A stretch of DNA of 64,000 bases, taken from NCBI RefSeq assembly GCF_965638725.1, contig NC_134973.1, positions 6,134,491 to 6,198,490 of the forward strand, written 5' to 3'. The notes beneath the pieces are model-generated. The model was not told where the DNA came from, did not search any database, and worked only from the letters and a program-made list of their open reading frames with translations. The position numbers and the translations under genes are program-made. The stretch's first letter is position 1, and every line of letters begins with the position of its first letter. Below, in pieces: positions 57,201-63,986 of this stretch. The stretch comes from Aptenodytes patagonicus. Taxonomy: Eukaryota; Chordata; Aves; Sphenisciformes; Spheniscidae.

Positions 57201-60200
57201 GGTCCCGCCAGCACCCGTGAGGACGGACCCTGGGCCCCGTCCCTTCATGCCGCCTCTCCCCTGGCAGCCCTGGGCCTGAGGAACCCACTGGGAGTGCAGA
57301 GCCCCTACTCAGCTGCCTTCGGCATGGCCCACCCCGCTGTTAATGGGGACATGGCCGGGACCGGCGCCTATGCCAGCCTCCACCTCATGTCCCCACAGCT
57401 CAACGGGGCTGCGGCTGCTGTGGGAGCCAGCAGCTACGGGCGCTCTCCCCTGGTGCGTGAGCCTCTTCCCTGTGGGGCCCTGGGGGCCGCTGGGCGCGAG
57501 CTGCTCTCACCCACTGTCCCCTCCAGGTGGGCTACGACCCGCACCCCCACATGCGCGTCCCAGGGCTGGCAGCTGGCATGCAAGTGGGGACTTCGGGGAA
57601 ACCGTAAGTGGGGCTGCACTGGGGGCTGTGCTGGGGACAGGGGACCAGGTGTCCTGCAGGGCTTAAGCTGGGAGGCGCAGGCGGGCCAGGGCCAGCAGGG
57701 ATGAGGAGCACAGCCTTGGCGGGGGGCACCCGTTCTGAGCAGCAGCAGGCTGTCGTGTGCCTGGCCAAGCTTCACCGGGTGCCACTCTGCTCACGGCTCT
57801 GACTCCAAACCATGCTGCCTGTGTTGGGCATGCTGGGTCTGACGTGGTGCCGGCCGCGCTCCGTGCGGGATCCTCGGATGGTTCTTACTGATCTGTCCTC
57901 TTCCAGCGCTTACTCCTTCCATGTCAGCGCTGACGGGCAGATGCAGCCAGTGCCTTTCCCACCCGATGCCCTCATTGGCTCCGGCATCCCCCGCCATGCA
58001 CGGCAGCTCCACACCCTGACCCATGGTGAGGTGGTCTGCGCTGTCACCATCAGCAACTCCACACGACACGTCTACACCGGGGGCAAGGGCTGTGTGAAGG
58101 TGTGGGATGTGGGGCAGCCAGGCACCAAGACAGCCGTGGCTCAGCTGGACTGCTTGGTAAGGAGGGGTGCGCCGCCGCCCTGGCACAGCTTGTTTCCCTG
58201 TTGGCCTGCACTGTGCCACCACGCTGTGGTGAAGAGGGGGTCTGGGGTCACCGTCGGGGACCTCAGGGGTGCAGGGGGCATTTGAAAGCAACGATGTGCA
58301 CGGAGGAGAGTCTCTGTGTGCATTTCTAAGTGGGGGTGGTGTGGGGCTGCTGGGGAGGGATGGTGGCTCCATGCTGCCAGTGTGCTCCCTGAGCGTCCCA
58401 AGCTGTTGGGGGGACTTTTACACACCTCCACCCCTTGGCACTGCTTCATCTGACAGCACCTGCCCTAAGACAAGCCTTTGCCAGTGTCAACCCCCAGCCA
58501 GATACTTCGTACGAGCCAGAATCACATGGGCTGAAGCATCACTCGGATTCAGCTCTGTCCTTGTTTCTGCTTTTGCTTGTGTGAGTCTGGCTGGAGGGAG
58601 AACTCCTATTTCTTTTAAAAATAAATGAAATGGACTGTCAGACCACAGCAACTCACCAGAGCCAAGCTGGAGGCACAGCTATCACCTGAGAGTATTTTTA
58701 ACCTGTGTTCTTTGAGGGTTTTTTTTAAATGGGCTGCTGGAATCAGAGTCCCTGTGCCTGCTTTGAAGAGCCCAAACCCAAGTCCTCTCCTCGACTTGCT
58801 GGCCTTGGGGCCTGGGCAGCCTGACAAATCTTATTCCTGGATGGTGCTGACCTTGAAGATACAGATGCATAAACAAGGAAATGACTGAGTCATGATAATT
58901 TCAAGCTGCATCAGAAATTCAGGAGCGGGGGAAAATGGTGTTTTTTAGTGTGCGGAGCCATGGGCTGTTGCAGCCTTGTTGGAGCTGCCTCCCCAGCTGC
59001 CCCTCGTCTCTTCCAGGACTGGCCATGTCTGTTGGGCAGCTGCTGGCAGGGACACTGTGGGGTGAGGGTGTCCCCAGAGCTGTTCACAGCGCAGTAACAA
59101 ACTGCGGGGATCCTGTGGGGGCCAGCCAGGGTGGCTGCTCTGGGCATGGGATGGGGTGGGCTGCACAGCTGTCCCTGCCCCAGCCCTGCTGCCCCAGGAG
59201 GGTGGCTGTGGGTCTGCCCTACTGCTGCTGCTCCTGCCCTCGGGACCTGCTGCTGGCCCTGGAGTGACCAGGCAGTCTGGGATGGGTGCAGAAGGGCTGG
59301 AGGGGAAGGGTTTAACAAGGTCCTCCCTCCTGCACCTCAGAACCGTGACAACTATATCCGCTCCTGCAAGCTGCTCCCCGATGGCCGGAGCCTGATCGTG
59401 GGGGGGGAGGCCAGCACCCTCTCCATCTGGGACCTGGCGGCCCCCACACCCCGCATCAAGGCTGAGCTCACCTCCTCTGCCCCCGCTTGCTACGCCCTGG
59501 CCATCAGCCCTGACGCCAAAGTCTGCTTCTCCTGCTGCAGTGACGGCAACATCGTGGTGTGGGACCTGCAGAACCAGACCCTGGTCAGGTGAGCCCAGGG
59601 CAGGGGGGGTGTGGGCAGGGGCTGCTCGGGGCTCCGCAGGCTAGGAACCACTCGGTCCCCTCCAGGGCATCCCCACCCCTTCCTACGGTCTAACCCTGGC
59701 CATGGGACAGTCCTTGTCCTTGCAGCAGGGATCTCCTACTCCTCACTGCTGGGTTCTGGCCTGGCCCATGCTCTGCGCTGCAGGCACTGGCAGCCCTGAT
59801 GGCCGTGCCCTCGCCCTCTCCGTCCCCCTCTTTCCCAGGCAGTTTCAAGGCCACACAGATGGTGCCAGCTGCATCGACATCTCTAATGATGGCACTAAGC
59901 TGTGGACAGGAGGGCTGGACAACACAGTGCGGTGCTGGGACCTGCGGGAGGGGCGTCAGCTGCAGCAGCATGACTTCAGCTCTCAGGTAGGGGCTGGGGC
60001 TGGCTTGGGAGCACCATGGGGCCCACCCACCAGGACCTGCCGTGCCGCTGCCTAACCCTGTCTCTCCCCCCAGATCTTCTCCCTGGGGTACTGCCCGACG
60101 GGAGAGTGGCTGGCAGTGGGCATGGAGAGCAGCAACGTGGAGATCCTGCACGTGACCAAACCAGACAAGTACCAGCTGCACCTCCATGAGAGCTGCGTCC

Positions 60201-61057
60201 TCTCCCTCAAATTCGCCTCCTGCGGTAGGCTCACCTGTCCTGGTCCCCTGGCTCTGGAGGCTCTTGGATGCAGTCTCCTCTCCTGGCCTTGTGTCCTAGG
60301 GCTTGTTGCGCTGGAGGCAAGCGCTGGCTCCGGTAGCCAGCCCTGTCCTGTGTGGATGCTAGTGCTAACTCTCAGAGAAGGGGCATCCATCCCTCCTGGA
60401 GCAACACCCGTGGCTGCACTTTCAGCTCTGTTGTCCCAGGACTCCCCTCTGTGTTCCTTAAAACAGCCCTTTGATTAACAAGTGGCAGAGATGTGGCTTT
60501 CCAGTCCCCACCTTGTATTACACAACCTGGGCATGATTTGCTGCAGGAATCCAGTGGGTGGGTCTGGTTTGGTGACAGGATGGTCTTTGTCCCTTCTGTC
60601 CCTCCTGTCCCTCCTACAGGGAAGTGGTTCGTGAGCACCGGGAAGGACAACCTGCTGAATGCCTGGCGGACGCCATACGGAGCCAGCATCTTCCAGGTGT
60701 GGGGTGTGCACAGCTGTTGGGATCAGGATTGGGGGGGGATGTTCCTCTGGGTGAGGTTGCCCAGAGCTGGGACTGCCCAGTACAACCCAGCTGTAAATGT
60801 ATCTTAGCAATAATAAGTAAGTCCCATAAACAAACTCATCGCTGCAGCCTCCCTGGGCACAACTCAGGGCCCCAAGTCCCAAGGGGTGGGACTGGGACCT
60901 TGCTCTGGGGCTGCTTCTTGCATTTACCTCCCTGTCCTCCTCTCTCCAGTCAAAGGAAACCTCCTCCGTCCTCAGCTGTGATGTCTCCACAGATGACCAG
61001 TTCATCGTGACTGGCTCAGGGGACAAGAAAGCTACAGTTTATGAGGTCATTTACTGA
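48373..61057 (+). CDS. Groucho/TLE transcriptional co-repressor, TLE2-type paralogue at the TLE6 position, 20 coding exons
   Basis: Coding exons: 48373-48396, 49066-49214, 49917-49980, 50476-50520, 53938-54000, 54214-54288, 54896-55091, 55556-55572, 55969-56073, 56225-56269, 56551-56706, 57033-57162, 57268-57452, 57527-57603, 57907-58156, 59341-59588, 59839-59986, 60074-60224, 60620-60696, 60950-61057. Phases join without a break; 770 aa, the length of human TLE1. Domains: Q (about 1-140), GP (141-211), CcN with NLS KKRK at 233-236 (212-261), SP (262-443), WD40 propeller (444-770). TLEs are nuclear co-repressors without DNA binding that tetramerise through Q and bind eh1/WRPW-type peptides and TCF/LEF factors. 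The N-terminus (MFPQN) resembles TLE1/4, while WD40 features such as DVGQPG and WDLQNQT match TLE2. The tail-to-tail position relative to a better TLE2 match suggests the TLE6 slot, so no symbol is given. Confidence 0.95.
50521..53937 (+). other. TLE intron between coding exons 4 and 5 (3.4 kb)
   Basis: The longest intron of the gene. It includes a CCCT/CCTTC microsatellite (about 51,166-51,200) and an AT-rich block at 52,205-52,450 with ACATTAATTTTTTATTG, ATGATCATTTTTCATG and GCACATTAACGAG words, a candidate intronic regulatory element. Nothing coding was recognised. Confidence 0.6.
55556..55572 (+). CDS. 17-nt micro-exon of the TLE GP region
   Basis: The preceding exon ends in phase 1 (donor GTGAGC at 55,092) and the following exon starts in phase 0 (acceptor AG at 55,967-55,968). 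Only this 17-base piece, flanked by AG (55,554-55,555) and GTAAGT (55,573), restores the frame, adding E-R-D-P-G-P. The sequence resembles the corresponding REPG segment of TLE1. Skipping it would cause a frameshift. Confidence 0.75.
55969..57603 (+). CDS. TLE exons 9-14: CcN and SP regions
   Basis: The exons encode residues about 212-444. CcN has the nuclear localisation stretch [11 protein letters not shown] and the acidic CK2-type segment [15 protein letters not shown]. The SP region is Ser/Pro/Thr-rich ([26 protein letters not shown]) and ends with [18 protein letters not shown]. In the family these regions carry phosphorylation sites that tune repression. The GP-SP linker is shorter and less conserved than in TLE1, as usual between paralogues. 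Confidence 0.9.
57907..61057 (+). CDS. TLE exons 15-20: WD40 propeller
   Basis: The exons encode residues about 444-770 and are highly conserved, with WD-type ends such as [35 protein letters not shown] and a C-terminal [14 protein letters not shown]. The propeller binds eh1 and WRPW/WRPY peptides of DNA-bound repressors. Exons 17 and 18 (59839-59986, 60074-60224) and the 87-bp intron between them are almost identical to the opposite-strand paralogue at 63,549-63,934, whereas exons 19 and 20 are not. Confidence 0.95.
58157..59340 (+). other. TLE intron between coding exons 15 and 16
   Basis: About 1.2 kb with an AT-richer central part (58,490-58,930) that contains TTTTAAAAATAAATGAAATGG and TCATGATAATTTCAAGC words. 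No coding potential was recognised. Donor GTAAGG at 58,157, acceptor AG at 59,339-59,340. Confidence 0.6.
59787..60230 (+). repeat. Arm 1 of a 444-bp near-identical inverted duplication (gene-conversion tract)
   Basis: This segment covers the last 52 bp of an intron, exon 17, the 87-bp intron, exon 18 and the first 6 bp of the next intron. Its reverse-strand partner is 63,543-63,986. By eye the two differ at about 7 positions (6 in exon 17, 1 in exon 18), with no insertion or deletion, and the intron is identical. Sequence beyond both ends is unrelated. Confidence 0.9.
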
Positions 61058-63934: not shown

Positions 63935-63986
63935 CTGGGAAAGAGGGGGACGGAGAGGGCGAGGGCACGGCCATCAGGGCTGCCAG
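63543..63986 (-). repeat. Arm 2 of the 444-bp near-identical inverted duplication
   Basis: The reverse complement of this segment aligns end to end with 59,787-60,230. The arms face each other across 3,312 bp. The tract ends 6 bp into the intron on the 3' side and 52 bp into the intron on the 5' side of the gene, so its limits do not follow exon borders. Confidence 0.9.

What the first reader, a model, noticed from the sequence alone, without database searches (positions are those of the whole stretch)
59787..63986. Recent gene conversion (or artefactual duplication) between two convergent TLE paralogues
Seen directly: 59,787-60,230 and the reverse complement of 63,543-63,986 are both 444 bp and differ at about 7 positions with no indels. 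An 87-bp intron and 52 bp of another intron are identical. The neighbouring exon pairs in the same two genes show ordinary paralogue divergence: about 5 of 77 bases differ in the penultimate exon, and about 28 of 108 in the last exon, mostly at synonymous sites. Flanking introns do not align at all. Old duplicates cannot keep an intron identical while adjacent exons drift, so a patch has been copied recently from one gene to the other. The mismatches cluster in exon 17, including an Asp/Tyr difference, which may mark incomplete conversion or newer change. TLE2-like residues in the shared patch (EILHV, KFASC, SSQ) hint that TLE2 was the donor.
Basis: partly seen in the sequence, partly recalled or inferred. 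Interest (0 to 1): 0.85.

Follow-up and report, generated by a model that had tools for sequence, protein, structure and literature searches.

The report
Two neighbouring genes overwriting each other
In birds, two old duplicate Groucho/TLE repressor genes that face each other keep copying the middle of their WD40 domain from one to the other, most recently in this penguin, while the rest of both genes has drifted apart.

Summary

Beyond the window edge, exon 16 (1.2% different) and exon 15 (6.0%) are also unusually alike; other exons compared differ by 13-30%, exon 19 by 6.5%.

It is not a one-off. In 33 bird species with both genes, exons 15 and 18 carry the same lineage-specific residues in both paralogues, such as Met668 in oscines and His665/Ala708 in galliforms and mallard; exon 20 shows no such sharing beyond chance. 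This is recurrent, domain-restricted gene conversion. In 263 of 263 proteins the gene ends were not exchanged.

An artefact is unlikely. The clue for TLE2 as donor fails; direction is unknown. The Asp/Tyr mismatch is an old fixed paralogue difference, kept in 33 of 33 species, inside a 25-bp island holding 5 of the 7 mismatches.

Known kind (compare avian TLR1A/B), at a locus I found no report of.

The parts
48373..61057 (+). Left gene: complete Groucho/TLE coding region, 20 exons, 770 aa
   Evidence: Model built by reading and checked for splice sites and open frame; 770/770 match to P0021, king penguin; TLE_N and WD40 in Pfam
63124..63934 (-). Right gene (TLE2 in deposits): last four exons 17-20; the rest lies beyond the window
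   Evidence: relatives named TLE2
59787..60230 (+). Homogenised tract, left copy
   Evidence: 444 bp, 98.4% to 63543-63986 reversed
63543..63986 (-). Homogenised tract, right copy
59839..59986 (+). Left exon 17 (right copy 63787-63934), 6 of 148 differ
59987..60073 (+). Left intron 17, 87 bp, identical to right 63700-63786
60074..60224 (+). Left exon 18 (right copy 63549-63699), 1 of 151 differs
59887..59911 (+). Unconverted island around codon 627 (Asp left, Tyr right): 5 of the 7 mismatches in 25 bp
   Evidence: chance 0.0006
59341..59588 (+). Left exon 16, 3 of 248 differ from right exon 16 (outside the window)
57907..58156 (+). Left exon 15, 15 of 250 differ from right exon 15 (outside the window): older or partial conversion
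59597..59786 (+). Middle of left intron 16, unrelated to the right intron (about 190 bp against 49 bp)
   Evidence: Sequences printed
60620..60696 (+). Left exon 19 (right copy 63319-63395), 5 of 77 differ
60950..61057 (+). Left exon 20 (right copy 63124-63231), 28 of 108 differ: unconverted control

Best explanation
Two old convergent Groucho/TLE paralogues undergo recurrent ectopic gene conversion restricted to the exons of the WD40 core (exons 15-18). The exons, kept alike by purifying selection, act as homology anchors. Exon 17, the 87-bp intron 17 and exon 18 form the longest unbroken island, so that intron is copied too; the long diverged introns stop the process. Events resolve without crossover: a crossover between these inverted arms would flip the 3.3-kb spacer and swap the last two exons, which was not seen. 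In this penguin recent events cover exons 16-18. A 25-bp island around codon 627 stays paralogue-specific, probably because selection removes copies that carry the wrong residue. Shown: DNA homogenisation in this genome, same-species sharing of residues across birds, no swapped ends in the proteins seen. Inferred: the repair process, the anchor role of exons, selection at residue 627. Unknown: direction of copying.
For: 145/145 intron bases identical. Fourfold sites differ at 10 of 135 in exons 15-18 against 34 of 72 in the other exons compared, p 8e-11. Conserved residues use the same codon at 234 of 251 sites in exons 15-18, 13 of 30 in exon 20 and 73 of 119 in exons 3-7 and 10. The TLE copy on contig C10 differs from the left gene at 23/148 and 15/151 in exons 17 and 18 where left and right differ at 6 and 1, so conservation alone does not explain it. 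In 33 species with both genes left equals right at aa 480, 482 and 687 in 33/33 and at 467, 665, 668 and 708 in 32/33, although these residues vary between lineages; exons 15 and 18 exceed all of 20,000 shuffles, exon 20 equals its shuffle mean. Tree of exons 15+17+18 mixes left and right (11 changes, 8 identical sets with both), tree of exons 19-20 parts them (1 change, support 97); a left clade is rejected, p 0.017. N-terminus and last exon belong to the same gene in 263 of 263 proteins.
Against: Only the penguin was seen at DNA level; elsewhere the evidence is protein. Shuffles ignore kinship, and independent pairs are too few for significance. Exon 16 shows no same-species sharing at protein level (130 of 165, shuffle mean 130) and exon 17 varies only at 627, so conversion there is seen in penguin DNA alone. 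Some sharing is incomplete: 494 differs in 7 and 497 in 9 of 33 species, 608 in 27 of 33, Melanerpes at 665 and 708, Struthio at 467 and 690. No raw reads.
Confidence: 0.93

Rival explanations
1. Assembly artefact: a piece of one gene was duplicated or merged into the other by the assembler.
For: High identity at short range, and no raw reads could be checked.
Against: Seven mismatches, five of them in one island that marks an old paralogue difference; unique flanks; graded identity over four exons; same-species sharing in other deposited genomes, with different residues in different lineages.
Confidence: 0.03
2. Parallel substitution under shared selection on the two WD40 domains, without exchange of DNA.
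For: WD40 of this family is strongly conserved, and the sharing in other birds was seen in proteins only.
Against: In penguin introns and synonymous codons are homogenised as well; in exon 15 three residues with up to four states match within species in 32 or 33 of 33 species; exon 20 shows none.
Confidence: 0.03
3. A single recent event in the penguin only, as first proposed, with TLE2 as donor.
For: The tract is young: 0 of 145 intron differences, which at rates recalled from memory (1.0-2.2e-9 per site per year) means under about 5-10 My.
Against: Sharing in oscines, galliforms, mallard and others needs other or older events. Exon 15 at 6.0% and exon 18 at 0.7% imply events of different age. 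The residues cited for the donor are old in the left gene.
Confidence: 0.02
4. Recent tandem inverted duplication of the whole gene, followed by fast divergence elsewhere.
For: Inverted pair of the same family, 3.3 kb apart.
Against: N-terminal halves are about half identical; fourfold divergence in exon 20 (12 of 15) is of the size seen against the TLE copies on other contigs (9 of 14 to 11 of 15); both genes were found across birds including Struthio.
Confidence: 0.01

Closest known systems
Avian TLR1A/TLR1B and TLR2A/TLR2B (PMC3125219; outline with abstract and one Results section read)
   Same: Bird paralogues that are alike within a species in one part of the protein and group by gene in another; shared codons used as the test; in TLR2A/B a central part stays unconverted
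   Different: Here an immune-unrelated corepressor pair with many exons, an inverted arrangement, a protected single codon, and an intron copied between two exons
Inverted homologous gene pairs of Caenorhabditis (PMC1803023; outline with abstract and Discussion read)
   Same: Convergent or divergent paralogues whose inverted repeat is kept alike while the sequence changes between species; gene conversion proposed
   Different: There the intergenic DNA and whole arms are near-perfect repeats; here only exons 15-18 and short intron parts are alike and the 3' ends are not
Palindromes of sex chromosomes (seen in search listings only)
   Same: Arm-to-arm conversion between inverted copies
   Different: Here a short patch inside two diverged genes, on a contig not known here to be a sex chromosome
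Mammalian TLE6-TLE2 pair (gene order recalled, not tested)
   Same: The left gene is called TLE6 in Nipponia nippon; the right gene is called TLE2
   Different: Chains named TLE6 in the solved structures score 182-210 bits against the left WD40, TLE1 709 bits: the bird left gene is a canonical Groucho

Membership tests
Interlocus gene conversion | Abrupt block of high identity that includes non-coding sequence | tested here: met
Interlocus gene conversion | Flanking sequence at ordinary paralogue divergence | tested here: met
   Exon 20 25.9%, exons 3-7 and 10 13-30%; introns outside the patch do not align
Interlocus gene conversion | Non-reciprocal: one donor, one changed recipient | tested here: inconclusive
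   No outgroup DNA of both genes; the residues cited for the donor are uninformative
Interlocus gene conversion | No exchange of flanks | tested here: met
   263 of 263 proteins keep N-terminus and last exon of the same gene
Interlocus gene conversion | Both copies confirmed in raw reads | not testable with these tools
   No reads held
Concerted evolution of paralogues | Paralogues within a species more alike than orthologues, in several lineages | tested here: met
   Exon 18: mean 0.15 differences left-right in one species against 1.20 left-left and 1.36 right-right between species; exon 15: 0.76 against 1.49 and 2.56. Not met for exons 16, 19 and 20 at protein level; exon 17 varies only at 627
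Groucho/TLE corepressor (left gene) | N-terminal Q domain (TLE_N) plus WD40 propeller | tested here: met
   P0021, identical to the left protein: TLE_N 1.9e-64 and WD40
Groucho/TLE corepressor (right gene) | N-terminal Q domain (TLE_N) plus WD40 propeller | tested here: inconclusive
   WD40 exons 15-20 and exons 3-7 and 10 located by likeness to the left gene; no full model built and no Pfam scan run

The most novel reading that the evidence does not exclude
Across the bird radiation two convergent Groucho genes share one WD40 core through perpetual non-crossover conversion, while a single codon (Asp/Tyr 627) is defended by selection in each copy. The genes then differ in the N-terminal half, the tail and one propeller residue, but not in the partner-binding core.
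Probability: 0.5. Interest if true: 0.65.

Novelty: new member of a known kind. Interest (0 to 1): 0.55.

Why it matters
It would explain why deposits name the bird left gene inconsistently and why single-gene trees of this family can mislead. It offers a clean natural experiment: an inverted pair 3.3 kb apart, many genomes, and visible unconverted islands. From it one could measure conversion rate, tract limits set by introns, the scarcity of crossovers and selection against conversion at one residue. It also suggests that partner binding of the two corepressors is kept in common while the rest diverges (inference).

Tried and rejected
Artefactual duplication, a single recent event, TLE2 as donor by the cited residues, parallel selection, a young whole-gene duplication and crossover/inversion were each considered and set aside for the reasons given. 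GC-biased repair: tract GC 0.633 against 0.627 and 0.569 in the 1-kb flanks, and the seven mismatches show no single direction; nothing follows. Independent pairs on a tree from the N-terminal halves of both proteins were too few for significance: aa 467, 2 of 3 the same way and 1 no difference; 480, 2 of 2; 482, 3 of 3 on starred branches; 687, 2 of 2; 708, 1 of 2 and 1 no difference; 668, 1 pair counted 'the other way' because I coded each gene against its own commonest state, which differs between the genes; the output for 665 was cut. In exon 20 the oscine left gene has Ile747 like the right gene; with one such site I make nothing of it. Dating rests on recalled rates. Exon 7 of the right gene has no AG acceptor at the place found, so its edges are approximate.

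Sampling: each protein listing shows the best 120 of 4,752, 4,174 and 4,173 hits, so species are not a random sample; the third query was made to reach galliform and duck left genes. aa 467 lay outside the scored stretch of all three searches, and 480 and 482 outside that. Dropped rows: six arthropod and sturgeon hits (P0001-P0004, P0121, P0122), and proteins whose WD40 part is not 326 aa or whose tail fits neither gene; the 33 species had one variant per gene. Oscine and other clade names, and the TLR, MHC and human gene-order background, are from memory where no call is given.
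Full report
WHAT IS THERE. The window holds a complete left gene on the + strand, 20 coding exons at 48,373-61,057, 770 aa, with AG/GT at the splice sites, and the last four exons of a right gene on the - strand (63,934-63,124), convergent with it. The left protein matches a deposited king penguin (Aptenodytes patagonicus) protein 770/770, and the contig that carries the window is 6,479,072 bp long, the length listed for that protein's contig. 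The window is G000:C25:6134491-6198490. The identical deposited protein carries the Groucho/TLE Q domain and WD40 repeats. Most listed deposits of the bird left gene call it TLE1; some say TLE6 (Nipponia), TLE2 (Columba, Amazona) or TLE3 (Indicator). The right gene's relatives are mostly called TLE2. Human TLE6 and TLE2 are convergent neighbours as I recall; this was not tested.

THE TRACT. 59,787-60,230 against the reverse complement of 63,543-63,986: 444 bp, 7 mismatches, no gaps. It covers the last 52 bp of intron 16, exon 17, the 87-bp intron 17, exon 18 and 6 bp of intron 18; all 145 intron bases match. Five of the seven mismatches lie in 25 bp (59,887-59,911) around codon 627, a clustering that chance gives with probability 0.0006. 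The genome search, which scores only its best candidates, found the tract at two places at 98% or more; the other seven matches, on contigs C10, C33 and C34, are at 77-88%.

BEYOND THE WINDOW. I read 30 kb of C25, of which 26 kb lie beyond the window. Exon 16 differs between the genes at 3 of 248 bases, with a 225-bp identical run; exon 15 at 15 of 250. Exons 3-7, 10 and 20 differ by 13-30% and exon 19 by 6.5%. Exons 1, 2, 8, 9 and 11-14 were not compared base by base. Fourfold sites: 10 of 135 differ in exons 15-18, 34 of 72 in the other exons compared, exon 19 included (p 8e-11). Conserved residues (Met and Trp left out) use the same codon at 234 of 251 sites in exons 15-18, 18 of 23 in exon 19, 13 of 30 in exon 20 and 73 of 119 in exons 3-7 and 10. 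Control: the TLE copy on C10 differs from the left gene at 23/148 in exon 17, 15/151 in exon 18 and 32/248 in exon 16, where left and right differ at 6, 1 and 3; the copies on C33 and C34 that could be placed differ at 28-31 (exon 17) and 34-36 (exon 18). So protein conservation does not explain the identity. The border at 59,787 is a heterology: the middle of intron 16 is unrelated (about 190 bp left, 49 bp right) between an identical start of 8 bp and an identical end of 52 bp.

OTHER BIRDS. Three protein searches gave 146 species labels with a full-length WD40 part: 105 with a left, 74 with a right and 33 with both genes. In those 33, left equals right at residues 480, 482 and 687 in 33 of 33, and at 467, 665, 668 and 708 in 32 of 33 each. 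Yet these residues differ among lineages: Met668 in both genes of 16 of 17 oscines (the other, Haemorhous, has Met left and Val right) and Thr in both of all 16 others; His665 and Ala708 in both genes of the five galliform and duck species; Ser687 in both genes of mallard and Pogoniulus; Ile, Leu or Met at 467 in both. Exon 15: 371 of 396 cells match (shuffle mean 327); exon 18: 193 of 198 (mean 157); neither was reached in 20,000 shuffles. Exon 16: 130 of 165 (mean 130); exon 17: 0 of 33; exon 19: 16 of 33 (mean 16); exon 20: 99 of 297 (mean 99). Shuffles ignore kinship. On trees the left/right label needs 11 changes on exons 15+17+18 without residue 627, with 8 sets of identical rows that hold both genes, and 1 change on exons 19-20 (support 97). 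Holding the left rows together on exons 15+17+18 is rejected (p 0.017). Homogenisation is incomplete: the right gene alone has Ser494 in 7 and Gln497 in 9 of 33 species, Met608 in 27 of 33; Melanerpes differs at 665 and 708, Struthio at 467 and 690.

RESIDUE 627. Left is Asp in 102 of 105 species labels (Tyr in Otus sunia, a strigiform cluster and Anser) and right is Tyr in 72 of 74 (Asp in Eudyptes filholi, Asn in Nycticryphes). Solved TLE1 has Asp, so Tyr looks derived in the right gene. In 33 of 33 species with both genes the pair is Asp/Tyr. With the DNA island in penguin this suggests that converted copies crossing this codon are lost by selection. That is inference: exon 17 has no other protein variation in these 33, so only the penguin shows that exon 17 was converted around it.

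MECHANISM. The arms are an inverted repeat 3.3 kb apart. A crossover would invert the spacer and exchange exons 19-20 between the genes. By best score, N-terminus and last exon agreed in 261 of 263 proteins; the two exceptions, P0180 and P0187, are right-gene isoforms whose first 150 residues match the right gene at 93-95% and the left at 65-66%, so 263 of 263 agree. Hence resolution without crossover, or loss of crossovers. The block ends where introns have diverged, and the only intron copied whole is the 87-bp one between two conserved exons. I read this as exons acting as homology anchors (inference). The 0 of 145 intron differences put the last event within roughly 5-10 My at substitution rates that I recall. 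Direction is unknown.

Right about conversion, the tract in the window and its youth. The donor clue fails: EILHV, KFASC and SSQ are all in the left gene of the five palaeognaths checked and of tuatara, and of two of three turtles (the third has KFAAC); platypus and echidna have EVLHV. Direction itself stays open. The Asp/Tyr change is old, not new.

WHAT IS KNOWN. Partial concerted evolution of bird paralogues is described for TLR1A/B and TLR2A/B (PMC3125219: outline with abstract and one Results section read), and maintained inverted homologous gene pairs for Caenorhabditis (PMC1803023: outline with abstract and Discussion read). Searches for TLE2 with TLE6 and gene conversion (none) and TLE2 with gene conversion (one paper, seen in the listing only, on human 16p11.2 copy number) and broader ones (listings only, best 5 to 20 shown) showed no report of this pair; the library lacks most subscription journals.

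Noticed in passing
Left gene 48373-61057 and relatives P0005-P0120: Deposits of the bird left gene carry names of TLE1, TLE2, TLE3, TLE6 or groucho-like, while other TLE-like exons lie on contigs C10, C33 and C34 of this genome.
   Followed up: partly
Residue 627 in P0099, P0096, P0265 (left) and P0201, P0146 (right): Exceptions to the Asp/Tyr rule: left Tyr in Otus sunia, a strigiform cluster and Anser brachyrhynchus; right Asp in the penguin Eudyptes filholi and Asn in Nycticryphes. They may be conversions across the codon or deposit errors.
   Followed up: no
60620-60696: Exon 19 differs from the right gene by only 5 of 77 bases, against 12-19 of 77 for the TLE copies on other contigs: possibly an older conversion.
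   Followed up: partly
37588-38223: Open frame with a PAP2 domain; a PLPP2-like gene by recall.
   Followed up: no
26496-27053: Open frame that reminded me of MIER2; no Pfam family found.
   Followed up: no
4854-4891: A 38-bp self-complementary stretch, 94.7%.
   Followed up: no
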